Of a DNA stretch of 64,000 nt, positions 525 to 14,889 are shown piece after piece. The DNA is taken from the NCBI GenBank assembly GCA_022448985.1, contig JAKVCR010000027.1:1-64000 (forward strand). The letters run 5' to 3'. Under the pieces are notes generated by a model. The model was given only the letters and a program-made list of their open reading frames with translations, had not been told where the DNA came from and searched no databases. This stretch comes from Roseibacillus sp. Its GTDB lineage: Bacteria > Verrucomicrobiota > Verrucomicrobiia > Verrucomicrobiales > Akkermansiaceae. The translations under genes were made by a program, and so were the position numbers. Within the stretch, counting starts at the first letter, position 1; every line of letters begins with the position of its first letter.

Positions 525-797
525 ATGGCCCAGGCAATAATGGATCCGGACGAAGTCCGGCGGTTCGCCAAGGAACTGAAACGATTTAATGATGAGCTTC
601 AGGTGAAGGCCTCTTCCCTGCAGTCCCGGTTCACTGCCCTGGGGGATACCTGGAAAGACCAGGAGAACCAGAAGTTCGCGGAGGAATTTGTCGGGACGAT
701 GAAGGCCTTGAAGAAATTCATCGAGGTTTCCGAGAAACACACACCCTTCCTTTTGCGAAAGGCGCAACGGATCGAGGAGTATCTCGATCAGCGCTAG
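525..797 (+). CDS. WXG100-like small helical protein (candidate ESX-like substrate)
   Basis: This 90-residue protein has the length and layout of the WXG100/ESAT-6 family: two predicted amphipathic helices joined by a turn containing W43-K44-D45. The classic motif is W-x-G, so this is a W-x-D variant. It continues with F51 and F55, the spacing usual after the turn tryptophan. No signal peptide or membrane segment is visible. The canonical YxxxD/E secretion tail is not obvious; the C-terminus reads RIEEYLDQR. It is the first gene of a tight run ending with an FtsK/SpoIIIE ATPase, which is the typical genetic partner. Family members usually form dimers and are exported by the ATPase. Assignment rests on motif, size and context; a start at 540 (second Met) is possible. 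Confidence 0.7.
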   Translation: MAQAIMDPDEVRRFAKELKRFNDELQVKASSLQSRFTALGDTWKDQENQKFAEEFVGTMKALKKFIEVSEKHTPFLLRKAQRIEEYLDQR

Positions 798-820
798 GCC
801 AGCAGTCACCCCGTTTTCGC

Positions 821-1390
821 ATGGATCGGCAGGCCAAGGTCACATCGGTTGACGCGCTCACCACATTTCGCTCAAGCCTGATCATCTACATGGGCTCGGT
901 GGGGAATGCCCTGGACGAAGTGCGTGACGAAGTGCGTCGCATGCGGACCTGGTTGCAGGTGGATCAGCGGGCTCACTGGGGTGGACAGCTGAAACGTCTG
1001 CGCAAGCAGCTTGAGCAGGCCGAGGCCGAGTTGTTCACCTCACGGCTCAGTTCCATGACAAGCCACAGCGCGGCGCGGCAGATGGCGGTGACGCGGCTCC
1101 GACGCATGGTGCGGGAGACGGAGGAAAGGGCCAAGGCGTTGCAGAAGTGGATTCGGAATTATGACAGCCTGGTCGAGCCCCTGCTCAAGAAGCTGGATGG
1201 CATGCAGCACTTTGCGGCTCATGATCTGCCCAAGGCAGTCTCCTCCCTTGCGCAGGCAGAGCGGACCCTTGACGATTACGCCCGCATCGCCCCGGAGGGC
1301 GGAGGGAATGAAGGACCCGGCGCGGCGGAAGAGGCCAAGGAGGAGAGGGCAGAGAGTGGTGCTGCCCCGGAGGAAGGGGGGGAGGGATGA
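821..1390 (+). CDS. Helical hypothetical protein of the ESX-like locus
   Basis: This 189-residue protein has no recognised domain. Residues 10-160 are predicted almost entirely helical, rich in Arg, Glu, Leu and Gln, with coiled-coil character around 55-115. An HWGG segment at 52-55 resembles a WXG turn but is not in the same register as in the small neighbours. The last 35 residues are acidic, Gly/Ala/Glu-rich and probably disordered. No signal peptide or transmembrane segment is seen. It starts 23 bases after the WXG100-like gene and overlaps the next gene by 4 bases (ATGA), so it is probably co-translated with them. It may be a further substrate, a chaperone or an adaptor for the ATPase. 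Confidence 0.65.
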   Translation: MDRQAKVTSVDALTTFRSSLIIYMGSVGNALDEVRDEVRRMRTWLQVDQRAHWGGQLKRLRKQLEQAEAELFTSRLSSMTSHSAARQMAVTRLRRMVRETEERAKALQKWIRNYDSLVEPLLKKLDGMQHFAAHDLPKAVSSLAQAERTLDDYARIAPEGGGNEGPGAAEEAKEERAESGAAPEEGGEG

Positions 1391-1602
1391 GTGCGAGAGC
1401 GAGTGCAGTGAAACTCACCAAGTCGACCAAGGCCTTCCTGCAGAGTTGGGACCGTGTGAAAACCCACTGGCGGGACAGCAGGCAGCGGGAGTTCGAAAAG
1501 GACTTTATTGAGACGCTTCCCGACGATATCTCGGCAGCCATCCGGGTAATCGAGGAGATCGACAAGATTTTAACCAGAGCCCGGCGCGATTGTGAGGACT
1601 AG
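1387..1602 (+). CDS. Second WXG100-like small protein
   Basis: This protein of only 71 residues contains W28-R29-D30, then F36 and F40. The spacing (W to first F eight residues, to second F twelve) is identical to W43/F51/F55 of the protein at 525-797. It is therefore a probable paralogue or heterodimer partner, as in EsxA/EsxB pairs, although it is short for the family (about 100 residues). Both helices are charged and no signal peptide is present. It overlaps the preceding gene by 4 bases and the following ATPase gene by 11 bases, which suggests translational coupling. The family link is an inference from the motif and context; overall sequence identity to the first small protein is low. 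Confidence 0.6.
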   Translation: MSARASAVKLTKSTKAFLQSWDRVKTHWRDSRQREFEKDFIETLPDDISAAIRVIEEIDKILTRARRDCED

Positions 1603-4600
1603 AATCGGAGTCAGCAGGGGTCTGGAACTCGCCAATGGGCTGGCCGAGGCAATCAGGGAGTTTTCGGAGCGCGAAGAGATCGCGGCAAAGGAGCGGCGCA
1701 CCAGGAACTTTGCGGCCAAGCGGGCCTTCGAGCAGGGATGCGAGAAGGAGAAGGAATCGCTGGAGACAGCCATCGCGGAGGCGGAGACGAGGTCGGTCGC
1801 TGAGAAGGAACACGCCGAGGCCCGTCACGCGGCGAGGGCGGAGTGGATTGAGCGAGCGCTGCCTTCCAGCAAGCGCCTGTTGTCCAAGCGGGCTGAGGCC
1901 CTGAAAGGCAAGACAGCCTCCGAGTTGCAGGTCCAGGCCGTAACCGACAAGGTGACCCGGCAGGCGTCTCTGGAAAAGCTGACCGAAATGTACGAGGGGC
2001 TGCACGCCGAGCTGGGGCAGGAGGAACAGAATCTCCAGAAGTTACAGCGCCGGAGCAGAGGAGCGATGCGAGGTTATCCGCGTTTCCAGAAGAAGCTCAA
2101 CCAAGCCTACGGAGAATCTCTCGAGGTAGGAGAGGTGGACCTCTCGGGACAGACGCCGGACTTCCTGGAACGTGTGCGGAAAGGAGTGGCGCAGGGTGAG
2201 GAGAAGCTGGCCCTGTTCAGGAAGAACGGCCTGGCGCGATTGCTGAGCTTTTTTCCCTGGTGGCTGTTGCTGGTCCTGGGATGGGGGGGCGCTATCTACC
2301 TTTCCAACTTCTGGGGAGAAGGGGAAGCGGACTGGGTCCTGGCTGGCGGAGTGGCCGGGGGCACTGTTTTTCTCATTTTCGTACTGCAATTCACTACAGG
2401 CCGCGGAGCAGAGCCCGCGGCCCAGGCGGTGGCGGAGCAGATCGAGAGGGCCCGGCGCGCCTCGGTCGTCTGTTCGGAGCGGATCGCGCAGCGCTACCAG
2501 GAGGAGCAGGAGCATCTCTCTGCGGAGGAGGCCGCGGGGGAGAACCGGTGGGTCCAGGCCGACGAGGCCGCGAGTCGGCTGCGGGAAGAGGGTGGCCGCC
2601 GGATCGAGGAAAAATACCAACGGGCCCGGACCAGGAATGATGAGATGCGTGAACGCATCGTGGGTCCGTTTAATTCCCTTCATGAAGGCCGCCTGGAGGA
2701 GTTGCGTCAGGGGTCCGCCGATCGAATTGCCAGGTTACAGGCGGAATACGATGAGGCGGTGGAGGAAGTGGAAACGACCTACGAGGGGAGACGGAACGAG
2801 ATGGAGGCGGAGTGGACCACGCGGGTGCAGTCGATCTACCAGGAAGCGGGGGCGATGGCGGAGTCGCTCGCGCCCCTTTCCCCGCCATGGGAGCGGAGCT
2901 ACCTGGAATGCTGGCAGCCCTCTGAGGAATTGCATGATGTGGCACGCTTCGGGCGAGTCTCAGTGGCCGGGAATACGCTGGCGGAAGAGGCCGAGCTGGG
3001 TCTGCCCGATGCGAGAGCGATCGAGGTTCCCATGGCCCTGCAGCTGCCCCACGATGGATCGCTGCTTTTCGAGACGGAGGGGTCGGGACGGGAAACCGCA
3101 ATCGGTGCGCTCAACAACATCATCCTCCGGTTGCTGGCCACCACCCCGCCGGGCAAGCTGAACTTCACCATCATCGACCCCGTTGGACTGGGAGAAAACT
3201 TTGCGGGAATCATGCACCTGGCCGACTACGAGGACAGTGTGATCGATGGGAGGATCTGGACGCAGCGGGGGCAGATCGAGGAGAAGCTGGGTGAGCTCAA
3301 CGAGCATATCGAGAAGGTGATCCAGATGTATCTCCGCAATGAGTACGAGACCATTACGGATTATAACGAGCAGGCGGGTAATATTGCGGAGAAGTATTAC
3401 TTCCTCGTTATCGCGGACTTTCCCGCGAGCTTTAGTGAGACGGCGGCCAAGCGCCTCCAGAGCATCGCGATGAGCGGGCCGCGTTGCGGGATCTATACCC
3501 TGATGCACTGGGATCACCAGCAGACCGGCGGTCCGGCTGAGCTCATGCCGGAGGTCCTGCGCGAGAACAGTATCCGTATTCGCGGCGAGGGCGAACGCTT
3601 CCTGATAGGTGCGGACGACAAGGAGGGGATGGCCCTGGAGTTTGATCCTGCGTCTAACCCCGAAATTGCGGTCGAGTTCATCCAGAAAATCGGTGCCAGC
3701 AGCATCGATGCGAACCGGGTGGAAGTGCCTTTCCAGCATGTCATTCCGAAGGAAGATGAGTTCTGGAGCAGCGACACTACCAGGGAGCTGAGAGTTCCCA
3801 TCGGGAGAACCGGAGCGACCAAGCTGCAGTATCTGGCGATCGGGAAGGGAACCCGGCAGCACGCCCTTTTTGCCGGCAAGACGGGATCCGGCAAGTCGAC
3901 ACTGTTTCACGTGATCATCTCGAATCTGTCACTCTGGTGCAGCCCGGACCAGGTGGAGTTCTACCTGGTGGACTTCAAGAAGGGGGTTGAATTCAAGTGC
4001 TATGCGGCGGCACGTCTGCCCCACGCACGGGTGGTGGCGATTGAGAGTGACCGGGAATTCGGTCTGAGCGTGCTCAAGCGGATCGACGAGGAGCTGAAGC
4101 GGCGGGGGGACATGTTCCGCAAGCTGGGGGTCCAGGATGTGGCAGGTTACAAGAAGGCTGGCGGGAGCGAGCCGGTGCCACGATCTCTCCTGATTATCGA
4201 TGAGTTCCAGGAGCTTTTCGTGGAGGACGACCGCATCGCACAGGATGCTTCTGTTCTTCTGGATCGTATCGTGCGGCAGGGTCGCGCCTTCGGCATTCAT
4301 GTTCTGCTGGGATCGCAGACCCTGGGTGGAGCCTACAGCATGGCCCGCACCACGATGGGCCAGATGGTCATCCGGGTAGCCCTGCAGTGCAACGAGTCGG
4401 ACGCCTATCTCATCATGGACGACTCCAACCCTGCTCCTCGCATGCTGACGCGGCCGGGAGAGGGGATTTACAACGATAGTGCCGGTGCCCTGGAAGCCAA
4501 CAGCCCGTTTCAGGTGGTTTGGCTGCCGGATGAGGAGCGGGACGAGTCTCTCCAGCAGGTGCTCAGGATTGCGGAGGAGAATTCCTATGAATGCTCTGTT

Positions 4601-5476
4601 CCCATTGTCTTTGAGGGGAACGCCCCGGCGGATGTCGACGAGAATGAGTTGCTGCACAGGCTCCTGCACGCCGAGTCGATTGAAACGACTGTTTCCAAGC
4701 GGTCGTGGTTGGGTTCTCCGAACTCCATCAAGGGGCCGACGGAGGCAACCTTCCATCGCCAGAGCGGAAACAATCTTATCGTGATCGGTCAGCGGGAGGA
4801 AGCGGCCCTGGCCATGCTGGCGGTCTCACTGGTCTCCCTTTCGGCCCAGTCCGGGAAGGACGGGATCAGGTTCATCGTGTGTGACGGAACCACTCCCGGG
4901 TCGTCAGAAGGAGCGTTCCTGCAGAGAGCGGTGGAAGCGGTGCCACATCAGGTGGAGGTCATCAAAAACAATGATCTGCCCCGGGTCATGGGCGAACTGG
5001 GCGAGGAAATGAAACGGCGGGCGGCGGACGAGGAGGTAGCCGCCAATGATCCGCCGGTCTTCCTGCTGATCCACAACCTGCAGAAGTTCAAGAAGCTTAA
5101 GCACGAGGATGACTTTGACTTCTCCTTTGACAGCGATGATGCGGGTCCGAACCCGGGGGCGCAGCTCAACGAGATCGTGACCGAGGGGACGAGTTATGGC
5201 CTGCACGTGATCGCGACGGTAGATACCTACAACAATCTCAACCGGTTCCTGAGCCGGAAGGCGCTCAGCGAATTCGAGATGAGGGTTATTTTCCAGATGA
5301 GCCAGAACGACTCGGCCGCCCTTGTGGACAGTCCGGCGGCAAGCAACCTCGGCCTGCACCGGGCCCTCTTCTACAACGAGCATGAAGGCTACCTGGAAAC
5401 CTTCCGGCCTTATGGTCTGCCCGGGAATGCCTGGCTGGAGGAGGCGGACAAGGAGCTCAAGAGGCTGGTTAGGTAA
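1592..5476 (+). CDS. Membrane-anchored FtsK/SpoIIIE-type ATPase, EccC/EssC-like
   Basis: This 1294-residue motor protein is predicted to power secretion of WXG100-type substrates. Residues 1-210 are highly charged and coiled-coil-like, where EssC proteins carry FHA domains. Two membrane segments lie at about 221-238 and 247-266. A second coiled coil covers about 275-430. Three ATPase-like modules follow. The first has a P-loop remnant ETEGSGRETA (494-503) and a FLVIADF strand (604-610). The second has a full Walker A, GKTGSGKST (762-770), and Walker B, LLIIDEF (866-872). The third is degenerate: VIGQREEAA around 1064-1072 and FLLIHN at 1157-1162. Start GTG at 1592 overlaps the small upstream gene. 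Three tandem modules behind two membrane helices fit EccC/EssC better than DNA-pumping FtsK, which has one module and a gamma domain. Function is inferred. Confidence 0.85.
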   Translation: MRTRIGVSRGLELANGLAEAIREFSEREEIAAKERRTRNFAAKRAFEQGCEKEKESLETAIAEAETRSVAEKEHAEARHAARAEWIERALPSSKRLLSKRAEALKGKTASELQVQAVTDKVTRQASLEKLTEMYEGLHAELGQEEQNLQKLQRRSRGAMRGYPRFQKKLNQAYGESLEVGEVDLSGQTPDFLERVRKGVAQGEEKLALFRKNGLARLLSFFPWWLLLVLGWGGAIYLSNFWGEGEADWVLAGGVAGGTVFLIFVLQFTTGRGAEPAAQAVAEQIERARRASVVCSERIAQRYQEEQEHLSAEEAAGENRWVQADEAASRLREEGGRRIEEKYQRARTRNDEMRERIVGPFNSLHEGRLEELRQGSADRIARLQAEYDEAVEEVETTYEGRRNEMEAEWTTRVQSIYQEAGAMAESLAPLSPPWERSYLECWQPSEELHDVARFGRVSVAGNTLAEEAELGLPDARAIEVPMALQLPHDGSLLFETEGSGRETAIGALNNIILRLLATTPPGKLNFTIIDPVGLGENFAGIMHLADYEDSVIDGRIWTQRGQIEEKLGELNEHIEKVIQMYLRNEYETITDYNEQAGNIAEKYYFLVIADFPASFSETAAKRLQSIAMSGPRCGIYTLMHWDHQQTGGPAELMPEVLRENSIRIRGEGERFLIGADDKEGMALEFDPASNPEIAVEFIQKIGASSIDANRVEVPFQHVIPKEDEFWSSDTTRELRVPIGRTGATKLQYLAIGKGTRQHALFAGKTGSGKSTLFHVIISNLSLWCSPDQVEFYLVDFKKGVEFKCYAAARLPHARVVAIESDREFGLSVLKRIDEELKRRGDMFRKLGVQDVAGYKKAGGSEPVPRSLLIIDEFQELFVEDDRIAQDASVLLDRIVRQGRAFGIHVLLGSQTLGGAYSMARTTMGQMVIRVALQCNESDAYLIMDDSNPAPRMLTRPGEGIYNDSAGALEANSPFQVVWLPDEERDESLQQVLRIAEENSYECSVPIVFEGNAPADVDENELLHRLLHAESIETTVSKRSWLGSPNSIKGPTEATFHRQSGNNLIVIGQREEAALAMLAVSLVSLSAQSGKDGIRFIVCDGTTPGSSEGAFLQRAVEAVPHQVEVIKNNDLPRVMGELGEEMKRRAADEEVAANDPPVFLLIHNLQKFKKLKHEDDFDFSFDSDDAGPNPGAQLNEIVTEGTSYGLHVIATVDTYNNLNRFLSRKALSEFEMRVIFQMSQNDSAALVDSPAASNLGLHRALFYNEHEGYLETFRPYGLPGNAWLEEADKELKRLVR

Positions 5477-5564
5477 TGGAATGCGGGGAGGGGTAACATG
5501 GTCCTCTCATCAGGGAGTGAAGGATGCTTGATAGCTGCCGGGGGGAAGGGTGTAGGATGAGGAC

Positions 5565-6788
5565 GTGAAGATGGTCCTGCCTTTCCTCCTGTGTTTCGTG
5601 GTCGTATGCGGATCTGCCCTGCCCGTGGGAGCGGAGGATGTCTGGCCGTCGTGGCGGGGTCTCCGGGGTGACGGATCCAGTCCCGACAAGGTGGTGCCCC
5701 TGAAATGGAGCGTGGAGAAGAACACGGTCTGGAAGACGCGCCTGCCGGGGAAGGGTCATGCCTCGCCCATCGTGTGGAAGGACGATGTCTTTATCGTGAC
5801 TGCGGTGGAGGACAAGCGACAACTGCTCTGCCTGGACCGCAGGAGCGGGAAGGTGAAGTGGTCCGAGACGGTATTGACCGCACCACAGGAACGCATTCAC
5901 CGGCGCAACAGCCTGGCCTCCTCCACTCCTGCCACGGACGGGGAGCAGGTTTACGTGAGTTTCCTGGATGGGCAGGACATGTGCGTGGCGGCCTACAGTC
6001 TGACTGGCAAGAGACGGTGGGAGAAACGACCGGGTGTATTCTCCAGCATGCACGGCTACTGCTCGAGTCCCATCCTCTGGAAAGACAAGGTGATCATCAA
6101 TGGAGATCACGATGGCGAGTCCTACCTCGTGGCCCTGGAGAAGAAGAGCGGGAAGGAAGTCTGGAAGACGATGCGAGCCAACCGGACCCGCAGTTACTGC
6201 ACCCCGGTGATCTGGACCATTGAGGGGCGCAACCAGATGGTTCTCGCAGGGGACAAGACGGTGGCAAGCTACGATCCCGATACCGGGAAACGGCACTGGG
6301 TAATCGATGGCCCCACCGACCAGTTCGTGGCTTCCCTGGTCTACAATGGAGACCTGCTCTTCATGACCTGCGGATTTCCGCAGCGGCACATGCTGGCAAT
6401 TGACCCGCGGGGATCGGGAAATGTCACCAAGTCACATGTCAGGTGGCGCACCCGGAAGGATCCTTCCTACGTGCCCAGTCCCGCCAGCATCGGGAAGTAT
6501 TTCGTGGTGGTCTCGGACAGCGGGAAGGCGAGTTGCCTGGAGGCCAGGACGGGGAGACTGGCCTGGAACAAACGGATTGGGCGCGAGCACGGTGCTTCCG
6601 CGGTCACGGTCCAGGGGCATGTCTGCTTTGTTTCAGAAAGCGGCGTCATGACCGTGATCAGGCCCGGTGAGGAATTCGTGGAGGTGGCCCGTAATACACT
6701 GGGCGAGGAGATGCACGCTTCTCCCGTGATCACGCAGGGCCAGTGGATCCTCCGGGGAGCGGAGCACCTGTTCTGTATCGGTCTATAA
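5565..6788 (+). CDS. Secreted PQQ-like beta-propeller protein
   Basis: This 407-residue protein has an N-terminal signal peptide of about 23 residues ending VGA-ED. The mature part opens with WPSWRGLRGDG, the typical start of PVC-group PQQ-like propeller proteins. Repeated blade motifs follow, of the form 'ALEKKSGKEVWK' and 'ARTGRLAWN'. Such proteins fold as a beta-propeller related to BamB and quinoprotein dehydrogenases, but this short form lacks recognisable PQQ or calcium-binding signatures, so an enzymatic role is unproven. It starts with GTG, with AGGA-like purines about ten bases upstream. It is not obviously part of the ESX-like operon, since 88 bases separate them. Two paralogues lie at 10339 and 20028. 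Confidence 0.8.
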   Translation: MKMVLPFLLCFVVVCGSALPVGAEDVWPSWRGLRGDGSSPDKVVPLKWSVEKNTVWKTRLPGKGHASPIVWKDDVFIVTAVEDKRQLLCLDRRSGKVKWSETVLTAPQERIHRRNSLASSTPATDGEQVYVSFLDGQDMCVAAYSLTGKRRWEKRPGVFSSMHGYCSSPILWKDKVIINGDHDGESYLVALEKKSGKEVWKTMRANRTRSYCTPVIWTIEGRNQMVLAGDKTVASYDPDTGKRHWVIDGPTDQFVASLVYNGDLLFMTCGFPQRHMLAIDPRGSGNVTKSHVRWRTRKDPSYVPSPASIGKYFVVVSDSGKASCLEARTGRLAWNKRIGREHGASAVTVQGHVCFVSESGVMTVIRPGEEFVEVARNTLGEEMHASPVITQGQWILRGAEHLFCIGL

Positions 6789-6790
6789 TG

Positions 6791-6844
6791 CCTTGGTGTG
6801 AACACTATTCGCGTGAATTCGCGTCCATACTGTTCACACCAAGG
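6791..6844. repeat. Perfect 14-bp inverted repeat upstream of the integrase remnant
   Basis: CCTTGGTGTGAACA at 6791-6804 is exactly reverse-complementary to TGTTCACACCAAGG at 6831-6844, separated by 26 bases. It lies directly after the propeller stop codon and two bases before the ATG of the integrase fragment. The arms contain TGTTCACAC, which recurs at 9028-9050. It may be a recombinase or regulator binding site, an element end, or a terminator for the upstream gene. Confidence 0.75.
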
Positions 6845-6846
6845 AC

Positions 6847-7023
6847 ATGTCCACCCTGTTTAGAAATGCGAATTCCCCGGTCTGGCGGGCACGGTATCAC
6901 GATCGAAATGGCAAGCGGGTGTCCCGCACAACGGGAACACGGTCAAAGCGCGAAGCACGCCGGATCGCTGAGGGATTCGAAGCAGGGGAGAATGGTCATA
7001 AAAACGGCGCGAACATTCAATGA
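6847..7023 (+). pseudogene. Truncated tyrosine integrase N-terminus
   Basis: The frame from ATG 6847 encodes only 58 residues before TGA at 7021-7023. It contains PVWRARYHDRNGKRVSRTTG followed by RSKREARRIAEGFEA. This matches the N-terminal arm-binding domain of phage-type tyrosine integrases, whose usual form is 'S-x-Y-W-x-A-R-Y-x-D-x-x-G-K-R-x-x-R-S-T-G'. Intact enzymes have about 350-400 residues and a C-terminal R-H-R-Y catalytic domain, none of which is found downstream. It is therefore a remnant of an integrated element. The remaining stretch 7024-7242 contains no gene I can support. Confidence 0.7.
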
Positions 7024-7242
7024 TGTCAGGGACCTGCCAAATCCTTCACGAGCCTTTTTTGATGAATCCCACCCAACGATCTTCCCATCGCCGCTTGAAA
7101 CTGAGCGGGCCTTTGCTCGGTGTGGCGGTCCTGGCCGGCATGATAGTGTGGTTTGGAAGCGCCATCTCCGCGGCGGCGGGATGGGTCATCGCGGCGCGCG
7201 AGGACAACGTCCCTGCCGGGATACCAGCTCTTAGCGCGATTC

Positions 7243-8742
7243 TCATCCACCTCGTCGCATCCGCTCGAGCACATTGGCCGTGATCTGTTGCACGCGCCGA
7301 TCCGGTCCTCGCGGTTCGGTGTGGGCTTTCGGACGGACGTATCCAGGCGGCTCGCTCAGCCCGTCAGCCCACCAACAGGTGGAGGCATTGAAGATAAAGT
7401 TGTCTTTCGGCCCGGGATAGACGGTCGCGGTGTAGGTGCCACCGTTGGGTTTACCCCCGCTCACGGTCGCACCACTGGCCACGATCTCTAAGCCGGGAAT
7501 GTCCGCCGGGTCGCCATGCCATTCCCAGCCAATGAGACCGGGAATGCGATCGCCCGCTTTCATTCCGGTGCCGGCATAGATCCAGTGCTCGGGTTTGGTA
7601 CAAATCCAGTCCGCTCCGCCGATGACAGGACCAGTACTGTGGGCGCCGATCAGCTCGTTCGCGTAGGGCCGCTCGTGCTTGAGAGTCTTTATCGCCTCGA
7701 ACTCCTGCGTGCCACCCGGCGGACCGAAGAGGCCCACGCGCTCGAATGCCTTCAGCTTTTTATCGAAGATGATGCGCCCGCAGATGGCGTTGCCGGAGAG
7801 AAATGCGACATTGACGCCCGCAGCGATTGCAGCTCGCACGTTCTGAAACATCTCGATGGTCCAGTATTCATCGTGACCGACGCTGAGAAATCCCTTCGCG
7901 CGCAGTAATCCCATCGCATCGCGGTGGGTGTCGAGGTTCGAGATGTAGGTCACATCGTCGCCACGCGACTCCATCCAGTAGGCGAGCGGGAATTCCCACA
8001 GCATAAACTCCCCGGATCCGGTCGAGAGGGGGGCATCAAAGATCTGGCAGTACTTGCCATAGGGACGCTGGAAGCCGACGCGCACTCCGCTGCCACAGTA
8101 CCACTGGTGCTTGCCATCGTCATAGAGCGAAAACTGCGAGGGCCAGCGGTTGTATGCCTGCCAGGTCGTGTCGCTGCATTGGAACAGGAAATCGGCCCGC
8201 CGATCGTCGCGCACGATGAAGATGACGTAACTCTGCACGCCCTCGCCCTCCTCGGTCAGCTTCCCCAGATAGACCCCGCTGAGCCAGTCGTCGGGAATGG
8301 TCAGTTCGGCACAGGCCGGCCACCCGCAACTGCGTTCGCGTTTTTTCCCGACCGGCGGATCGTCGTGGGCCGCTCCCTCGAACGGACCCAGCCGTCGAAG
8401 AAATCGCCCGCCCTTGCCGCCATAGTATCCGAGCCGGTAGAGATCGATGGTGAAGCGTTGGGCCGGATCCGTCTTCACATGGAAAGAGATCTTCTCGCCG
8501 GCCCGCACGCTGGTCTTCGAGCAATAGCCCTCAATCCAGGGGCAACGATACTTCGGCTTCGGGTCAATGCGCGGCCTCTTGAGCATCCAGTCCCGAGTGC
8601 CCGGCTTGGCGTTCTCCTCCCGGACCAGGGTGGACTGTTTCGGAGCATCGGCGGCGCCGGCCCGTCCGAGTCCGGCACCCAGTGCGCCCACGCCGAGACC
8701 ACCCAGTTTCACAAGCGCAAGGCGTCGGGATTCTTTGTTCAC
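7243..8742 (-). CDS. N,N-dimethylformamidase-like protein with a Tat signal
   Basis: This protein of 499 residues resembles the C-terminal, catalytic-like region of the large (beta) subunit of N,N-dimethylformamidase, a family common in PVC bacteria with many functionally unknown members. Characteristic stretches are SDTTWQAYN, SVGHDEYWT and GVNVAFLSGN. GTG at 8742 is preferred over the upstream in-frame ATG (8820), because it places a twin-arginine signal (SRRLALVKLGG then an Ala/Gly-rich core) at the N-terminus. The protein should thus be folded in the cytoplasm and exported. It sits alone between an integrase remnant and a tRNA-like scar, so it may have arrived by transfer. Its substrate is not known, and hydrolysis of dimethylformamide should not be assumed. 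Confidence 0.75.
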   Translation of the reverse strand: MNKESRRLALVKLGGLGVGALGAGLGRAGAADAPKQSTLVREENAKPGTRDWMLKRPRIDPKPKYRCPWIEGYCSKTSVRAGEKISFHVKTDPAQRFTIDLYRLGYYGGKGGRFLRRLGPFEGAAHDDPPVGKKRERSCGWPACAELTIPDDWLSGVYLGKLTEEGEGVQSYVIFIVRDDRRADFLFQCSDTTWQAYNRWPSQFSLYDDGKHQWYCGSGVRVGFQRPYGKYCQIFDAPLSTGSGEFMLWEFPLAYWMESRGDDVTYISNLDTHRDAMGLLRAKGFLSVGHDEYWTIEMFQNVRAAIAAGVNVAFLSGNAICGRIIFDKKLKAFERVGLFGPPGGTQEFEAIKTLKHERPYANELIGAHSTGPVIGGADWICTKPEHWIYAGTGMKAGDRIPGLIGWEWHGDPADIPGLEIVASGATVSGGKPNGGTYTATVYPGPKDNFIFNASTCWWADGLSEPPGYVRPKAHTEPRGPDRRVQQITANVLERMRRGG

Positions 8743-9027
8743 TCCACCAGTCTGCCCAATCCAGGAGCTCCCATCAAGGTCGCAAAGTCTCGAGGAGGCT
8801 CGGGAGCGCCGGGAATCCAAAGAAGATGACCGGCGGTGGGATTGCGGATCTCGATCCAGTCCGGGGTGTCGGGGCTCCCCCTACCCTCCAAGAATTTTCA
8901 TGCGGGGTGATACATACATACACGAGCGCGTGCAAAAAGTGCCGCCCCCACCGGTGGGGTGTGCGGGGCGCAGTGAACCGCCTACCGTGAACCCGTGCAG
9001 GGGACGGGGTAAGGGGTGCAGGAAAAA

Positions 9028-9050
9028 GTGTTCACACTTGGTGTTCACAC
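9028..9050 (+). repeat. Two GTGTTCACAC direct repeats
   Basis: GTGTTCACAC occurs at 9028-9037 and 9041-9050, three bases apart. The same decamer is found on the minus strand at 6796-6805, and TGTTCACAC at 6831-6839. The motif thus marks both sides of the segment holding the integrase remnant. The pattern suggests recombinase-binding or attachment sequences. Apart from these repeats and the hairpin and tRNA-like scar to the right, the 442-base gap 8743-9184 shows nothing I can support. Confidence 0.5.
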
Positions 9051-9071
9051 CTGCGTTCCCCTGGAAAGGAG

Positions 9072-9103
9072 AAGGCCCCGAAGTCGTTGAACTTCAGGGC
9101 CTT
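9072..9103 (-). terminator. Hairpin terminator, minus strand
   Basis: AAGGCCC at 9072-9078 pairs with GGGCCTT at 9097-9103, and GAAGT inside it pairs with ACTTC, leaving a short loop. Read on the minus strand, the stem is followed by a pyrimidine-rich TTCTCCTTTCC-like stretch. It could terminate the minus-strand gene ending at 9185. Originally it was probably the terminator of the tRNA whose 3' end seems to remain at 9104-9127. Confidence 0.6.
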
Positions 9104-9127
9104 CGTTAGTTACGGGGGCAGGATCCG
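9104..9127 (-). other. Probable tRNA 3'-end remnant (attachment-site scar)
   Basis: On the minus strand this reads GGTCCGGATCCTGCCCCCGT and then AACTAACG, directly before the hairpin terminator. GGATCCTGCCCCCGTA resembles the end of a T-arm plus acceptor stem of a tRNA such as tRNA-Met. The remainder of a cloverleaf cannot be drawn to the right, so no intact tRNA is present. Partial tRNA 3' ends are typical leftovers of integrase-mediated insertion. The assignment depends on recalled tRNA sequence patterns and should be tested. Confidence 0.4.
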
Positions 9128-9184
9128 GACCAGTTCTGTATCGGTTCGAACTAGCGGCCGGCGAGCCGTGGATTGCGACTCCCG

Positions 9185-10231
9185 CTACAGGATGCCGCGG
9201 GCCTTGAGGTTGTTGAGGCGGTGGGCGATGTCTTCAAGACCGTCGGCGGTGCACTCGTTGTAGTCCCGTCCGTCGGTGGTATCGATGCCATGCCCGGGAT
9301 CGAGGTCCCGGAGAGCCTGGAGGGCGTCATCATCGTGCCGGAAGAGTTCGACGAAAACATGTTCGAGGGTGCCGGTCCTGGCCACTGCGGTAAGAAGGGA
9401 GCCGATCCAGCCGTCGTCGGTGGAAAGGCATCCCCGGGTGGTCATGGCGGAAGCATGGAAGCAGCCGAGTTCGCCTGCCGCACCCATCTGCGCAATGAGG
9501 TCCTCGTTTTCCGGAATGCTGAGATCCGAGTCCCCGCAGTGGGCGGCATCGGTGAGGGACTTGAAGAACTTGTTGTCGCCGCCGACGAGGGAGTTGGCGG
9601 CCTGGAGGAATTTCCAGAGACGGCCGATGTCGGTGAAGGTGGCAAACTCGCCGGGGCGCAGGAATTCTACATGCCACGAAGCGACGCAGGAGTCAGCGAG
9701 CCCGGCCTCGGTGTAGCAGCGGTGGTGGAGCTTGGCGTTCTGCTCAACGGCGGCCTCAAAGTCGGCTCCATCCTTGCGCGGTGAGCCGCTCATCCACTCC
9801 TCAATGGAGGTGGAGGAAACGATGGTGACACCGTGGGTCTTGGCCGCTTCCAGTCCGGAGAGGAGCTGGTCCGTGACCGCGGATTCGTCACCAGGATTCA
9901 TGGGGTCGGCGCCGCCCACCATGAGGACGAAGTAGAGCTTGAGGCCGAGATCCTTGAACCCGTTGCAGATCTCGTCGAAGTCCTCCGCCTTGGTGCCGGG
10001 GATAACGGGAACCTGCACGCCGTCGAGTTTGACGCGGCTGAGTTCCTGGAGCTTTTTCATCTCGGCGAGAACGACCAGTTCCCCGTCGCTGGTGCGTGGG
10101 ACGTTCCCGTCGTCATCGGGGACGATTCCTCCCACCCACCCGGAGTGGGTGGCGACGACCCCGAGCTCAATATCGGTCTTGTTGATGATGTCAGCCATGA
10201 TGTGGGCAGGAGTGTCCAGAGTGGGAGGCAT
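9185..10231 (-). CDS. Hypothetical TIM-barrel-like protein
   Basis: This protein of 348 residues has no signal peptide. Alternating strand/helix patterns with segments such as KLYFVLMVGGADP, VTIVSSTSIEEW and SCVASWHVEF suggest a TIM barrel of the sugar-phosphate isomerase/epimerase (xylose isomerase-like) kind. His, Glu and Asp residues near strand ends could bind a metal. I do not recognise a specific enzyme. An internal ATG at 10198 (MADIINKTD) is an equally plausible start, and neither has a clear Shine-Dalgarno sequence. The gene is isolated: it ends near the terminator at 9072-9103 and is divergent from the propeller gene at 10339. Confidence 0.65.
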   Translation of the reverse strand: MPPTLDTPAHIMADIINKTDIELGVVATHSGWVGGIVPDDDGNVPRTSDGELVVLAEMKKLQELSRVKLDGVQVPVIPGTKAEDFDEICNGFKDLGLKLYFVLMVGGADPMNPGDESAVTDQLLSGLEAAKTHGVTIVSSTSIEEWMSGSPRKDGADFEAAVEQNAKLHHRCYTEAGLADSCVASWHVEFLRPGEFATFTDIGRLWKFLQAANSLVGGDNKFFKSLTDAAHCGDSDLSIPENEDLIAQMGAAGELGCFHASAMTTRGCLSTDDGWIGSLLTAVARTGTLEHVFVELFRHDDDALQALRDLDPGHGIDTTDGRDYNECTADGLEDIAHRLNNLKARGIL

Positions 10232-10338
10232 TGGTCAAGAGTCAGGGCAGGGTTATTAGTTATTGCTTATTGGTTATCAGGAGGAGGAGTTTTCGATTCT
10301 TGTTGAGCGAGGAGAGGCTGCCTTGCTGTAGTGAGGCC

Positions 10339-11601
10339 ATGAACATGCGAGTGATTTTGTTGCTGGGGATGCTCTGGGCGGGAGCCGGGGTGAGGGCGGA
10401 AAACTGGCCTACGTGGCGGGGGCCGCACAGTAACGGAGTGGTGCCGGACCGGGAGGGTCCCGCCAACTTCGCTGCGGAGCGTATGTGGAAGGTCAAACTG
10501 GAGGGTCGGGCCTGTTCGACTCCCGTGGTATGGGAGGGGAAGGTGTTCGTGACCGGATTGATCGGTGAAAAGGACGCGGTCCAGGCCTTCGATCTCAAGA
10601 GTGGAAAGGAACTCTGGCGGAAGGAGCTTGGAGCGGCCCGGTTGGGACGGACGCAGCGAATCGGCAGCAGCGCGAACTCGTCCCCGCTCACCGATGGCAG
10701 GCATCTCTTTGTCTATTTCAAATCAGGGACGGTGGCGGCCCTGACCCTGCAGGGGAAGGTGGCCTGGAAGATCAATCTCGATGAGGTCGCTCATCCGGAC
10801 AAGATTCTATGGGACCGGGGCACCTCGCCGATCTTCGCGGGGGGGCACCTCGTGATCGCGGTCATGCAGCAGGCGGGAATCTCCTATCTCGTCGCCCTCG
10901 ACAAGAAGAACGGGAAACGCGTCTGGATCACTGAGCGCTCCTTCCGGACGGTTGGAGAAAACGGGGACAGCTACTCTTCGCCCTTCGTGGCGACGGTTGG
11001 TGGGGTCGAGACGATCGTGACCTGGGGTGGAGATCACCTGACCGGTCATGAGGCCAGGACCGGAAAGCAGCTCTGGTTCTGTGGTGGATTCAATCCCAAG
11101 CCGGAGCGGGTCTGGCGCACCATCGCCTCTCCCTCAGGCACAAACGGAGTTGCCATCGTTCCCCATGGCCGGGAGGACCGGGTGGCGGGAATCAAGCTCG
11201 GGGGGAAGGGAGACATCACCAAGTCGGCGTGGCTCTGGAGCGCCCGGGGCTGGGGTTCGGATAACTGCACTCCTGCCGCCCACGGGAAGCGGGCCCTCAT
11301 GCTGACCGATACCGGGAAGGCCCGGGGGACCTTGACGATGGTGGAGGCCGGCACGGGCAAGAAGCTCTGGCAGGAGAGCCTGCCAAAGTCCGTCCACACC
11401 TTCTGCGCTTCGCCGGTGGTGGCGGGGAACAGGCTCTATGTGGCGCGCCGGGACGGAGCCGTCTTCACTGCCAGGTTGACCGCGGAGGGGATCGAGGGCT
11501 TGGAGGAGATCAACATTGGGGAGGGCGTGATCGCCTCCCCGGTGGTGGTGGATGACAAGGTGCTCATTCGTGGAGACAGGCACCTTGTCTGCCTCTGGTG
11601 A
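10339..11601 (+). CDS. Secreted PQQ-like beta-propeller protein (second copy)
   Basis: This 420-residue protein has a short signal peptide (MNMRVILLLGMLWAGAGVRA) and then WPTWRGPHSNGVVP, the hallmark opening of the family. Blade-type repeats such as 'AFDLKSGKELWRKE' and 'GTGKKLWQES' recur along the chain. The ATG at 10339 is chosen because upstream in-frame codons give no sensible signal peptide; GTGAGG lies just before it. It is closer to the copy at 20028 than to that at 5565: both contain TWG-DHLTGH and CGGFNP segments. It is predicted to be periplasmic or cell-surface. No cofactor-binding residues could be assigned, and its role is unknown. Confidence 0.8.
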   Translation: MNMRVILLLGMLWAGAGVRAENWPTWRGPHSNGVVPDREGPANFAAERMWKVKLEGRACSTPVVWEGKVFVTGLIGEKDAVQAFDLKSGKELWRKELGAARLGRTQRIGSSANSSPLTDGRHLFVYFKSGTVAALTLQGKVAWKINLDEVAHPDKILWDRGTSPIFAGGHLVIAVMQQAGISYLVALDKKNGKRVWITERSFRTVGENGDSYSSPFVATVGGVETIVTWGGDHLTGHEARTGKQLWFCGGFNPKPERVWRTIASPSGTNGVAIVPHGREDRVAGIKLGGKGDITKSAWLWSARGWGSDNCTPAAHGKRALMLTDTGKARGTLTMVEAGTGKKLWQESLPKSVHTFCASPVVAGNRLYVARRDGAVFTARLTAEGIEGLEEINIGEGVIASPVVVDDKVLIRGDRHLVCLW

Positions 11602-11615
11602 CTGGGCCGTTTAAT

Positions 11616-13001
11616 TCAGGCAATCCACCCGAGGGCCTTGGCAGACGAGATGAGGGCCACCGCGACGATGGCGATCGAACTCAGGAGAAAGGCTGTCTTG
11701 TAGAACTGCCCTCCCTTCAGCTCCCTCGGAACCCACTTGCGGTGCATGATGACCGCGGCGTAGACTACGATGAGGAGGATGAAGGCGCTGGCGACTCCTC
11801 CGATAATGACCATGAGCCCCGGGGCCTGGAACCGGAGAAAGAGAATGGCCCAGATGGCCGGAAAGACAAAGGCGCAGGTCCCCACGAACTTTTTGCGGCT
11901 CTCGGGATCCTGGAAGTTTCCCCAGCCCAGTTGGCTGAAGGCATCGCTGAAGAGCCGGGACCAGGCGGCGAGGGCGGAGAGGAGGGTGGAAAAGAGCACC
12001 ACCAGCGCCCCGCCAAGGAAGATTCCGAAGGCCCAGCCACCGAGAGACTCGGTGTAGATCGTTCCCAGCTGCGAGATCATTTCAGTTTTAGCTGGGACAA
12101 GGTCATTGCGATGAAGAATAGCGGCGCCGAGGATATAGAAGAGGACCGTGACGAGGGTGTAGCAGAGCATGGCGGCCATGGCATCCAGGGTCATGACCCT
12201 GATCCAGCCGCGCGCACGCCGTAGCCAGATGTCGTGTGCCTCCCCGCTGGTCCAGGCCGGGCGTGGTCCGGTGTGGGCGGCGTAGCCTTTTTCCAGCAGC
12301 CAGTAGTTGTAGGCCATGATTTCATCTCCGCCCACCCCGGTGATGCCGAAGGCTCCCACCGCAATGATGACCGCGGCGGCGGGCAGTTGGAAGCTCAGGC
12401 CGGAGAGGATTTCCGGGCTGCTGACCGCGTTGGGTGTCCACTGCAGCGCAATCACGGAGATCAGGGTGAAGATGGTGAAGAGCCCGATCATTATGAGAGA
12501 GAGCTTTTCGAGAAAGCCGTAGCGCCCGACCGAGACGATGACAGCCACGACGAGAGCGGTGAAGAGAGTCCACCAGACCAGTCCAAAGTCGGCCAGGGCC
12601 GGGATCTGCATGAAAATGAGAGCCACCCCTCCCACGATCCCGCCGACCTGCAGGAACTTGAAGGACATGATGAGGAGCCAGATCCAGATCGAGAGGTGTC
12701 CCCTGCCGAGGCGGGGACCGGGCAGGTCATTGAGGGCCTGCATGGTGGTCCGGCCGGTGTAGATGGCGTGTTTGCCGAACTCGAGCTGGAGGGCGACCTT
12801 GACGAGGCAGGAGAAAATGATGACCCAGAGGCAGACGAAGCCGGCCTTGGCCCCGAGGAGGGTGGTGGCAAAGAGTTCCCCGGAACCCACGATGGAGGCG
12901 GAGAGGATAAACCCGGGGCCGAGAAAGCGAAGTTTTCCGGAGAAGGCGGTGGGTGGTTCGAGGATGTCGTCCTCGGTGAGGCGATACGGATTTTCAGCCA
13001 T
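11616..13001 (-). CDS. Nramp-like membrane transporter with altered metal site
   Basis: This 461-residue polytopic membrane protein has about eleven hydrophobic segments and the overall pattern of Nramp (SLC11) proton-coupled divalent metal transporters. The first helix reads FLGPGFILSASIVGSGE; the canonical DPGN metal-binding motif is replaced by GSGE (39-42). The sixth helix has GGDEIMAYNYW where MPHN-type sequence is expected. Related proteins with these changes are common in PVC bacteria, so the transported ion may not be Mn2+ or Fe2+. The gene is convergent with the propeller gene ending at 11601, with a 14-base gap. No regulator binding site such as an MntR box was recognised. Confidence 0.8.
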   Translation of the reverse strand: MAENPYRLTEDDILEPPTAFSGKLRFLGPGFILSASIVGSGELFATTLLGAKAGFVCLWVIIFSCLVKVALQLEFGKHAIYTGRTTMQALNDLPGPRLGRGHLSIWIWLLIMSFKFLQVGGIVGGVALIFMQIPALADFGLVWWTLFTALVVAVIVSVGRYGFLEKLSLIMIGLFTIFTLISVIALQWTPNAVSSPEILSGLSFQLPAAAVIIAVGAFGITGVGGDEIMAYNYWLLEKGYAAHTGPRPAWTSGEAHDIWLRRARGWIRVMTLDAMAAMLCYTLVTVLFYILGAAILHRNDLVPAKTEMISQLGTIYTESLGGWAFGIFLGGALVVLFSTLLSALAAWSRLFSDAFSQLGWGNFQDPESRKKFVGTCAFVFPAIWAILFLRFQAPGLMVIIGGVASAFILLIVVYAAVIMHRKWVPRELKGGQFYKTAFLLSSIAIVAVALISSAKALGWIA

Positions 13002-13143
13002 GGGATAGAGCAGTTTGCACGGATTGGAGCCTTTTCAGAAGCTCCAAATAGGGCAAGGGCGGGAGAAGGGGGAAATTATGGGGAGATTTCGTTGAATAGG
13101 GGAGGGCATGATCGCCGTCGAATGAGCCGAATCCATTTATATT

Positions 13144-14889
13144 GTGATGAAGCGTTTCCTGTCCCTTTTCCTGGTGCTCGTTGGTGGGTGCGTCCTGGCC
13201 GCCTGTGATTTCGCAAAGTTCTCGGCGGATGTCGAAACCGACAAGCTGAAGGAGAAGGTCGCAGAGCTCGAGAAGGAGCGTGAGGATGCTGCCCTGGATG
13301 CGGAGTTGGAGGAGGCACGTCGCCAGCTTGAGATCGCACTCACGGCCCTGGAAGGGGAGGATCCCGATGTGGGCGGGGCGCCGGATGATGCAGGGGTCAT
13401 TGCGGTCGAACCCAGCGATGCGGCGGATTTCACGAATGTGCCCCGGGCTATCGTGGTGGAGGAAGCACCCCGGAACGATGAACTGCTTCTGGAGGAGGAA
13501 AAGGCGGTGGCAATCGAGGCGACAGTCCCGGCCGCACTGCTCGATACCGGGGACCACCAGATCTTCTTTGCAGAGCTCTCAAGGTTCGGGGAGTGGTTCG
13601 AGACCCGGGATTACGGATTCGTGTGGCAACCAGCGGCCTTGCGGGAAGATCCGGCGTGGAGGCCCTACACCCGGGGTCGCTGGGTAAATTCCGACCAGGG
13701 CTGGACCTGGCTCTCGGATGAGCCCTTTGGCTGGGCGGTCTATCATTACGGTCGCTGGGTGCTTCTTGCCGAGCACGGCTGGGTGTGGGTGCCGGGCGAT
13801 GACTGGGCCCCGGCCTGGGTGTCCTGGCGCCAGAACGATGACTATCTCGGATGGGCGCCCCTGCCCCCTGAGACCCTCTACGACGAGGTCTACGATTACG
13901 ATCCGGGGATCGACCTCGCCTACGACGTATCCCCCGACTACTACAACTTTGTCCCGGTGGACCATTTCTACGAGCCGGTACAGCCCCACTGTGTGCCGCG
14001 GGTGACGGTGATCACCATCATCATCAATACCCGCAACGTAACGCGCTTTTCGATGCGGGGGCACCACGTGCATTGCGGGGGTCCGGACTTCGGCTGGGTG
14101 AACCGGCACGCGCGGCGGCCCGCCCGTCGCTGCCAGCTCGATTTCGGGGGCGGGCACGGCCACTTTGCGCATCGGCACCGTCATCGCCTGCACGAGGACA
14201 GGTTACACGTCTTCGCTCCACGGGTCGATGCACCCTGGAATGCCGCCGTCTGTCCGAGCCGGGTGGCGAGGAACCTCGGTCGGGTCGCTATCGTGCGGGC
14301 CGGCAAGAGAGAGATCAAACGGGATCTCAGGCATCGGCATCATGAGGCCACGGTGCGGCGTCACGAGGGCGCGCGGGAAGCCATCGCGACGACGGAATGC
14401 CAGGAGGCCCTGCGCAACAATCGACAACGGCGGAGGGCTGCGGGCCAACAGCAGGGGGAGGAGAACCCCCTGGATGAAAGGCAGAGGCGGAGGGCCAAAG
14501 CGGAGGAGGGCCTGCGTGCTGCCAGCGAAGCGGTGGTGGCAGCGGAACGCCGCATGCAGGACCGAAAATTGCCGCCCAAGGAGCGTGCGGAGACACAACG
14601 GATGATCGAGAAGGCCGGGAAGGAAGTGGCAGCGGTGCGCGAATCGCTGAGAAGGCGGGGGCCGGTTGTGGAACCCGGGTCTGGCAGGGGTGAAAACGCA
14701 ACTGCTCTCCGGGAGGGCCGCCGACGGAACGCTGACGAAGAGAAAGCGGAGGAATCGAAGCGGCGTTCTCTTGCCGAGCAGAAGGCGGAGGAGGTGAAGC
14801 GTCGGACCCTGGTCGAGCAGAAGCAGGCGGAAGAGGCAAAGCGGCGGGCTCTTGCGGAGCAGAAACTATTGGAGGCGACGCGCGAGTAA
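13144..14889 (+). CDS. DUF6600-like lipoprotein with charged repeat tail, cut by an in-frame stop
   Basis: The 581-residue product begins with a lipoprotein signal peptide ending LAAC. A short coiled coil follows (about 30-75). A Trp-rich region at about 165-260 holds repeated 'GRWV', 'GWTWLSDEPFGWAVYHYGRWV' style motifs cut here for length, typical of DUF6600. A His-rich stretch and then Arg/Glu/Ala/Lys repeats of the type RxLAEQKxAEExKR complete it. The TAA at 14887-14889 interrupts the repeat array, and the same frame stays open to 16149. Equivalent repeats read CGCGAGGAAATG where this one reads CGCGAGTAACTG, so a G-to-T change made the stop. The protein is probably an outer-membrane or periplasmic structural lipoprotein; function unknown. 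Confidence 0.7.
   Translation: MMKRFLSLFLVLVGGCVLAACDFAKFSADVETDKLKEKVAELEKEREDAALDAELEEARRQLEIALTALEGEDPDVGGAPDDAGVIAVEPSDAADFTNVPRAIVVEEAPRNDELLLEEEKAVAIEATVPAALLDTGDHQIFFAELSRFGEWFETRDYGFVWQPAALREDPAWRPYTRGRWVNSDQGWTWLSDEPFGWAVYHYGRWVLLAEHGWVWVPGDDWAPAWVSWRQNDDYLGWAPLPPETLYDEVYDYDPGIDLAYDVSPDYYNFVPVDHFYEPVQPHCVPRVTVITIIINTRNVTRFSMRGHHVHCGGPDFGWVNRHARRPARRCQLDFGGGHGHFAHRHRHRLHEDRLHVFAPRVDAPWNAAVCPSRVARNLGRVAIVRAGKREIKRDLRHRHHEATVRRHEGAREAIATTECQEALRNNRQRRRAAGQQQGEENPLDERQRRRAKAEEGLRAASEAVVAAERRMQDRKLPPKERAETQRMIEKAGKEVAAVRESLRRRGPVVEPGSGRGENATALREGRRRNADEEKAEESKRRSLAEQKAEEVKRRTLVEQKQAEEAKRRALAEQKLLEATRE

What the first reader, a model, noticed from the sequence alone, without database searches (positions are those of the whole stretch)
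525..5476. Minimal, divergent type VII/ESX-like locus in a PVC bacterium
Two WXG100-like small proteins, one helical protein and a three-module membrane FtsK/SpoIIIE ATPase overlap or nearly touch one another. The known core partners of type VII systems in Firmicutes (EsaA, EssA, EssB, YukD) and in Actinobacteria (EccB, EccD, EccE, mycosin) are absent from the window. The locus may be a stripped-down export system for diderm bacteria, with an unknown route across the outer membrane. The link between small proteins and ATPase is inferred from gene order and motifs.
Basis: partly seen in the sequence, partly recalled or inferred. Interest (0 to 1): 0.8.

Follow-up and report, generated by a model that had tools for sequence, protein, structure and literature searches.

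The report
Four-gene WXG100/EccC-like operon in Verrucomicrobiota
A set of four adjacent genes, two of them relatives of parts of the type VII protein export machine of Gram-positive bacteria, is kept as a single inherited unit in about half of the sampled genomes of an order of double-membraned bacteria (Verrucomicrobiota), where it may form a very small protein exporter whose cargo and outer-membrane route are unknown.

Summary
At 525-5476 four same-strand genes overlap or nearly touch: a true WXG100 protein (A, PF06013 E=1.4e-9), a long helical hairpin protein (B), a 71-aa WXG100-related protein (C) and a 1,294-aa membrane ATPase (D) with three FtsK/SpoIIIE-type domains, closest to EccC/EssC and not to DNA translocases. 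In 190 genomes of the order, 100 hold all four; every partial case lies at a contig end or is a divergent locus. The order A-B-C-D recurs in the other Verrucomicrobiota families examined. Where the operon has split (three different breakpoints), all four genes are still kept. No other neighbour is conserved. EssB and LXG-type substrates were not found; the only YukD-type hit belongs to a ThiF locus. Only the middle ATPase domain has intact Walker motifs. That architecture, with solo WXG proteins, was already noted for Verrucomicrobia in a 2012 table footnote (PMC3482391) as 'mobile versions of T7SS', so the kind is known. New here: the fixed four-gene composition, the membrane-anchored ATPase, and largely vertical inheritance in this phylum. 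Best reading: an inner-membrane WXG100 translocase that moves its own small helical proteins. Export is inferred and was not shown.

The parts
525..797 (+). Gene A: WXG100 protein, 90 aa, with a W-x-D turn instead of W-x-G and an invariant C-terminal Y-L-x-Q
   Evidence: PF06013 E=1.4e-9, above gathering score; 72.7% mean pairwise identity over 68 loci; W43, D45, Y86, L87, Q89 invariant
821..1390 (+). Gene B: 189-aa helical hairpin (helices 2-76 and 81-156) with a disordered acidic tail; no known family
   Evidence: AlphaFold2 mean pLDDT 88; no fold match at E<=0.001; L150 and Y153 invariant in 68 loci; co-occurs with A, C, D
1387..1602 (+). Gene C: 71-aa WXG100-related protein with a W-x-D motif and an invariant C-terminal Cys
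   Evidence: hhalign vs A family 75%, E 2.5e-5; reciprocal HMM hits; W21, W28, D30, F36, C69 invariant
1592..5476 (+). Gene D: EccC/EssC-like membrane ATPase, 1,294 aa, GTG start, overlaps C by 11 nt
   Evidence: EccCa 117 bits, EssC 102, EccCb 98, FtsK 25 bits; PDB best matches EccC and EccC5; Foldseek best EccC 8e-31, FtsK 8e-12
2240..2392 (+). Two predicted transmembrane segments of D (about residues 217-235 and 247-267)
   Evidence: Hydropathy; two segments in 56 of 72 homologues, one in 14, none in 2
2939..3646 (+). D1: first RecA-like domain (about residues 450-685), Walker A lost
   Evidence: Model; no conserved Walker lysine in 68 homologues
3788..4522 (+). D2: middle RecA-like domain (about residues 733-977), catalytic; Walker A GKTGSGKST at 3875-3901; Walker B D870-E871; invariant R895/R898
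   Evidence: All Walker residues invariant; 84.2% mean pairwise identity; Pfam FtsK_SpoIIIE stretch
4697..5413 (+). D3: third RecA-like domain (about residues 1036-1274), Walker A lost
   Evidence: Model; no Walker lysine

Best explanation
A self-contained four-protein WXG100 translocase of the inner membrane. D forms a hexameric motor anchored by two transmembrane helices, with ATP hydrolysed only by the middle ring of domains. A and C are WXG100-type hairpins that pair with each other or with B. Conserved C-terminal residues of A, B and C would act as recognition signals for the D rings, and D would thread one or more of these helical proteins, most likely B as cargo with A as the constant partner, across the inner membrane into the periplasm. 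Shown here: families, gene order, co-retention, single active site, membrane segments, vertical inheritance. Inferred: hexamer, pairing, export, identity of the cargo, final destination.
For: A is a true WXG100; D matches EccC/EssC far better than FtsK. All four genes are present in 100 of 190 genomes and co-vary, even where the operon is split at three different points. Complete genomes with the cassette have one WXG100 gene, this one. D2 motor and A are the most constrained parts (84% and 73% identity). Invariant C-terminal residues in A, B and C, where T7SS substrates carry signals (general knowledge). In relatives the gene between the WXG100 gene and the ATPase gene can encode a nuclease: a WHH/colicin-DNase protein followed by an SMI1/KNR4 immunity-type gene on a Helicobacter plasmid.
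Against: No export was shown. No envelope partner, protease or outer-membrane part was found. D lacks a fourth ATPase-like domain present in EccC/EssC. Some relatives without TM helices sit in defence-like loci (PMC11090510), so the pair WXG100/FtsK does not by itself imply secretion. No sequence relation between B and the nuclease proteins of relatives could be shown. B has no enzymatic domain.
Confidence: 0.5

Rival explanations
1. An intracellular, non-secretory WXG100/FtsK module: A, B and C are adaptors or scaffolds of the ATPase, which acts on nucleic acid or protein inside the cell (defence or stress), as could be read from loci next to TerY-P and CoCoNuT genes.
For: Related WXG100-ATPase operons flanked by VWA, PP2C, kinase, CARF and helicase genes in Caballeronia and in a Verrucomicrobiota paralogue (L059); those ATPases lack TM helices. 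PADLOC FtsK/HerA-type models match D weakly.
Against: D has at least one TM segment in 70 of 72 homologues; no defence genes or any other neighbour is conserved near the cassette; largely vertical, single-copy inheritance is unlike defence islands; no viral-contig hit.
Confidence: 0.22
2. A housekeeping envelope machine: D and its helical partners organise or remodel the inner membrane or periplasm, with A, B and C as permanent structural parts and not as cargo.
For: Strong purifying conservation of A and D2, single copy, vertical descent, no linked toxins; absence from small Akkermansia-type genomes.
Against: Absent from about 45% of genomes sampled in the order, so dispensable; WXG100 proteins of characterised systems are exported (general knowledge).
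Confidence: 0.2
3. A canonical type VII secretion system whose remaining parts lie elsewhere in the genome.
For: A and D belong to T7SS families.
Against: EssB 0 of 14 genomes, LXG 0 of 14, YukD only beside ThiF in one genome; equivalog cut-offs for EccC/EssC are far from met; EccB search inconclusive.
Confidence: 0.05

Closest known systems
Solo WXG proteins with a YueA-like three-domain ATPase, middle domain active (Zhang et al. 2012, PMC3482391, Table 1 footnote 6; Anantharaman et al. 2012 as cited in PMC11090510)
   Same: WXG100 protein, three FtsK/HerA domains with only the middle one intact, Verrucomicrobia named among the hosts
   Different: Described there as mobile; here inherited largely vertically and single copy. 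The four-gene composition with B and C was not described in the text read
[quoted passage not shown] 2024, PMC11090510); examples here L176 and L059
   Same: EssC-like ATPase with only D2 predicted active, two WXG100 proteins (one without the motif), a coiled-coil protein between WXG100 and ATPase genes
   Different: Those ATPases lack TM helices, their operons carry a nuclease-fused coiled-coil protein and are embedded in TerY-P/restriction loci
Type VIIa/b secretion systems and T7SSc-j (PMC11217815)
   Same: WXG100 (EsxA/TsxA) plus EccC/EssC-type ATPase
   Different: No EssB, T7SS-linked EsaB/YukD or LXG substrates found; W-x-D motif; active domain is the middle one of three; diderm host
Helicobacter pylori HP0062/HP0066 minimal WXG100-FtsK set (PMC4978471)
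   Same: Minimal WXG100 + FtsK gene set in a Gram-negative bacterium
   Different: The plasmid homologue examined (L177) carries a WHH/colicin-DNase gene and an SMI1 immunity-type gene in the slot where B lies here

Membership tests
WXG100 family (PF06013) | A scores above the curated gathering score, about 100-residue hairpin | tested here: met
   38.5 bits vs 27.3
WXG100 family (PF06013) | C scores above the curated gathering score | tested here: not met
   Of 34 members only 2 have weak PF06013 hits, best E 0.019. Relationship rests on profile-profile and HMM hits
WXG100 family (PF06013) | W-x-G motif in the turn | tested here: not met
   W-x-D invariant in A and C over 68 loci
Type VII secretion system (T7SSa/b) | EccC/EssC-type membrane ATPase | tested here: met
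   Best family and structure matches are EccC/EssC, TM segments
Type VII secretion system (T7SSa/b) | Equivalog-level match to EccC/EssC models | tested here: not met
   117 vs 509 bits, 102 vs 778, 98 vs 347
Type VII secretion system (T7SSb) | EssB/YukC present | tested here: not met
   0 of 14 genomes; control rings in B. subtilis
Type VII secretion system (T7SSb) | EsaB/YukD present | tested here: not met
   1 of 14, and that one lies next to a ThiF E1-like gene, away from the cassette
Type VII secretion system (T7SSa) | EccB present | tested here: inconclusive
   0 of 14 but the control did not ring
Type VII secretion system | EccD, EccE, mycosin, EsaA, EssA present | not tested
   No profile search of these was run; the 525-5476 cassette has no other gene
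Type VII secretion system | ATP- and D-dependent export of WXG100 proteins | not testable with these tools
   Needs bench work
WXG/three-domain ATPase operons of Zhang 2012 / Anantharaman 2012 | Three FtsK/HerA domains, only the middle one active | tested here: met
WXG/three-domain ATPase operons of Zhang 2012 / Anantharaman 2012 | Mobile | tested here: not met
   ATPase tree needs 8 family changes, minimum 7, shuffled mean 25.9; no viral hit; no plasmid record covers 80% of D
CoCoNuT type III-A EssC-like extension | Linked to VWA/TerY-P and CoCoNuT genes | tested here: not met
   No conserved neighbour beyond the four genes

The most novel reading that the evidence does not exclude
A complete protein translocase of a diderm phylum made of only four proteins, inherited vertically and distinct from type VII systems, with a non-toxin helical cargo and a housekeeping rather than warfare role.
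Probability: 0.2. Interest if true: 0.78.

Novelty: new variant of a known kind. Interest (0 to 1): 0.52.

Why it matters
Reviews still describe type VII secretion as Gram-positive, with unconfirmed WXG100/FtsK pairs in Gram-negative species (PMC10765036). A single-copy, largely vertically inherited four-gene unit found in 100 of 190 genomes of a diderm order is an unusually clean test case: it asks whether WXG100 export can work with one ATPase and three small helical proteins, and how such cargo deals with an outer membrane. It also corrects the idea that such modules are simply mobile.

Tried and rejected
Chance or shadow ORFs: rejected by conservation of all four frames and their order. 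DNA translocase (FtsK/SpoIIIE): rejected by score differences, although the middle domain alone superposes on FtsK motors as well as on EccC (VIA-align Z about 25 for both), so fold alone does not decide. Exact domain register to EccC (DUF-NBD1-NBD2 or NBD1-2-3): unresolved; by sequence D2 is nearest to NBD1, by structure the matches are mixed. B as homologue of nuclease-bearing proteins of relatives: not supported. B fold search: only generic long-helix matches. B as a WXG100 protein: hhalign probability 10%, not supported. Viral carriage: no hit. Plasmids and phages: only distant partial matches. Operon promoter and terminator: no signal above shuffles. EccB search uninformative. Complex modelling was not possible with the tool. 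The paper library lacks Sutcliffe 2011 and Anantharaman 2012, known here only through citing papers.

Full report
What is there. The window opens with the end of a cytochrome-c-like gene (to 388) and then, after 136 bases, four genes on the + strand: A 525-797, B 821-1390, C 1387-1602, D 1592-5476, with gaps of +23, -4 and -11 nt. A PQQ-like gene follows at 5565. The window is the first 64 kb of a 74-kb contig of a 4.6-Mb assembly; nearest named relatives of D are Roseibacillus, Verrucomicrobiales and Akkermansiaceae MAGs at 75-90% identity, so the host is a Verrucomicrobiota bacterium.

The proteins. A passes the WXG100 gathering score (38.5 vs 27.3 bits), with W-x-D in place of W-x-G. C has no significant Pfam match of its own, but its family and that of A find one another: hhalign probability 75%, E 2.5e-5, the C profile hits WXG100 proteins down to about 2e-6 and the A profile hits a distant C at 1.5e-6 (small databases, so these E-values are for a few thousand ORFs at most). 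I take C as a short WXG100 relative, not as a formal member. B is a helical hairpin of two 75-residue helices and a disordered tail (mean pLDDT 88); no fold match reached E 0.001, and long-helix matches in the second look are generic.

The ATPase. NCBIfam scores are 117 (EccCa), 102 (EssC), 98 (EccCb) and 25 bits (FtsK), all below equivalog cut-offs. PDB sequence and profile searches put EccC proteins first and Foldseek gives EccC 8e-31 against FtsK 8e-12. The model (mean pLDDT 78) shows three RecA-like domains. In 68 loci the middle domain keeps every Walker residue and two arginines, while the first and third have no conserved Walker lysine. Two hydrophobic segments lie at about residues 217-267; 56 of 72 homologues show two, 14 one and 2 none by the same simple measure.

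Conservation and linkage. In 190 genomes of the order, D was found in 105, A in 102, B in 101 and C in 101. Comparing the lists, 100 genomes have all four; five have a subset and in each the hit lies at a contig end (G071, G125, G139, G177, G084); G030 holds only a divergent locus; 84 have none. Twelve of the 14 genomes searched with PF06013 have a WXG100 match; eleven of them have exactly one, and the window's own assembly has in addition a truncated second match at the very end of a contig. The order A-B-C-D holds in 36 of 37 main-type loci (in the remaining one A lies on another contig) and in nearly all of 80 named loci that have contig room (the 80 were chosen by similarity of D). It also holds in four other families of the phylum, at 37-48% identity of D. 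The unit has been broken at three different points (A|BCD in G106 and G123, AB|CD in G024 and G103, ABC|D in G012), and every gene is still retained in those genomes. No other neighbouring gene is shared across families. I read this as strong evidence that the four products work together.

Inheritance. The D tree follows GTDB family labels: 8 changes where 7 is the minimum, shuffled mean 25.9 (quick method). The window's own sequence groups with another family at modest support (84), so some transfer is not excluded. No viral contig encodes it, and no plasmid or phage record covers 80% of D. This differs from the description of such modules as mobile.

Rates. Mean pairwise identity over 68 loci: A 72.7%, D2 84.2%, D1 57.9%, D3 56.2%, C 41.9%, B 39.9%, D N-terminal part 23.9%. 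The WXG100 protein and the motor are the fixed core, while B and C vary. Invariant C-terminal residues (A Y86-L87-x-Q89; B L150, Y153; C C69) fit the place of T7SS recognition signals, but none is a YxxxD/E motif; this is inference.

Relatives and literature. On a Caballeronia plasmid the neighbours are VWA, WXG100, a coiled-coil protein, two small proteins, an ATPase without TM helices, CARF, VWA, PP2C, kinase and helicase-type genes; a Verrucomicrobiota paralogue shows the same style (L059). This resembles the EssC-like extension of type III-A CoCoNuTs (PMC11090510), which also has only D2 predicted active. On a Helicobacter plasmid the gene after the WXG100 gene encodes a WHH/colicin-DNase-type nuclease, followed by an SMI1/KNR4 gene, an arrangement that suggests a toxin and its immunity gene. 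Zhang et al. 2012 (PMC3482391) listed verrucomicrobia among hosts of solo WXG proteins with a three-domain ATPase active only in the middle. A 2023 review (PMC10765036) calls such Gram-negative pairs functionally unconfirmed, and the 2024 survey of T7SS variants covers Gram-positive bacteria only (PMC11217815). I found no description of the four-gene unit in the held library, which lacks most subscription papers.

Missing parts. EssB and LXG proteins were not found in 14 genomes, with controls that ring. The single YukD hit lies beside a ThiF gene. EccB gave no hit but its control was silent. Other partners were not searched. No outer-membrane component is linked.

Verdict. A real, strongly conserved unit; a new variant of a known but functionally untested kind. 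The most likely mechanism is a minimal inner-membrane WXG100 translocase (0.5); an intracellular role (0.22) and a structural envelope role (0.2) remain open.

Noticed in passing
L059 (G156:C85), 2111-14688: A second, divergent WXG100/ATPase locus in a Verrucomicrobiota genome that also has the main cassette, with VWA, PP2C, kinase-like and MkoA-like helicase genes, resembling CoCoNuT/TerY-P-linked operons.
   Followed up: partly
L060 (G030:C12), 8734-13755: In the one genome of a small-genome genus (g2, 2.2-3.5 Mb) with any hit: two adjacent WXG100 genes, a multi-TM protein and a short (836 aa) FtsK-type ATPase, beside a Sel1-like repeat protein. Possible contamination not excluded.
   Followed up: partly
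L177 3746-8148 (Helicobacter sp. plasmid pNHP190012_1): WXG100, WHH/colicin-DNase nuclease, SMI1/KNR4, 77-aa protein and FtsK ATPase in a row: looks like an effector and immunity pair inside a minimal WXG100 operon.
   Followed up: partly
L166 (G056:C1:3614500-3634400), about 9898-11341: YukD-like ubiquitin fold next to a ThiF E1-like gene and B-box zinc finger genes: probably a bacterial ubiquitin-like conjugation locus, not type VII secretion.
   Followed up: partly
L174 (G000:C290), 6561-6701: A truncated second WXG100 copy of the A type at the very end of a contig of the window's own assembly; second locus or contaminant (assembly contamination 5.6%).
   Followed up: no
L189 (G364:C131), 2554-3939: A WXG100 domain at the C-terminal end of a 461-aa reading frame upstream of a divergent ATPase; may be a fusion or an over-long start.
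   Followed up: no
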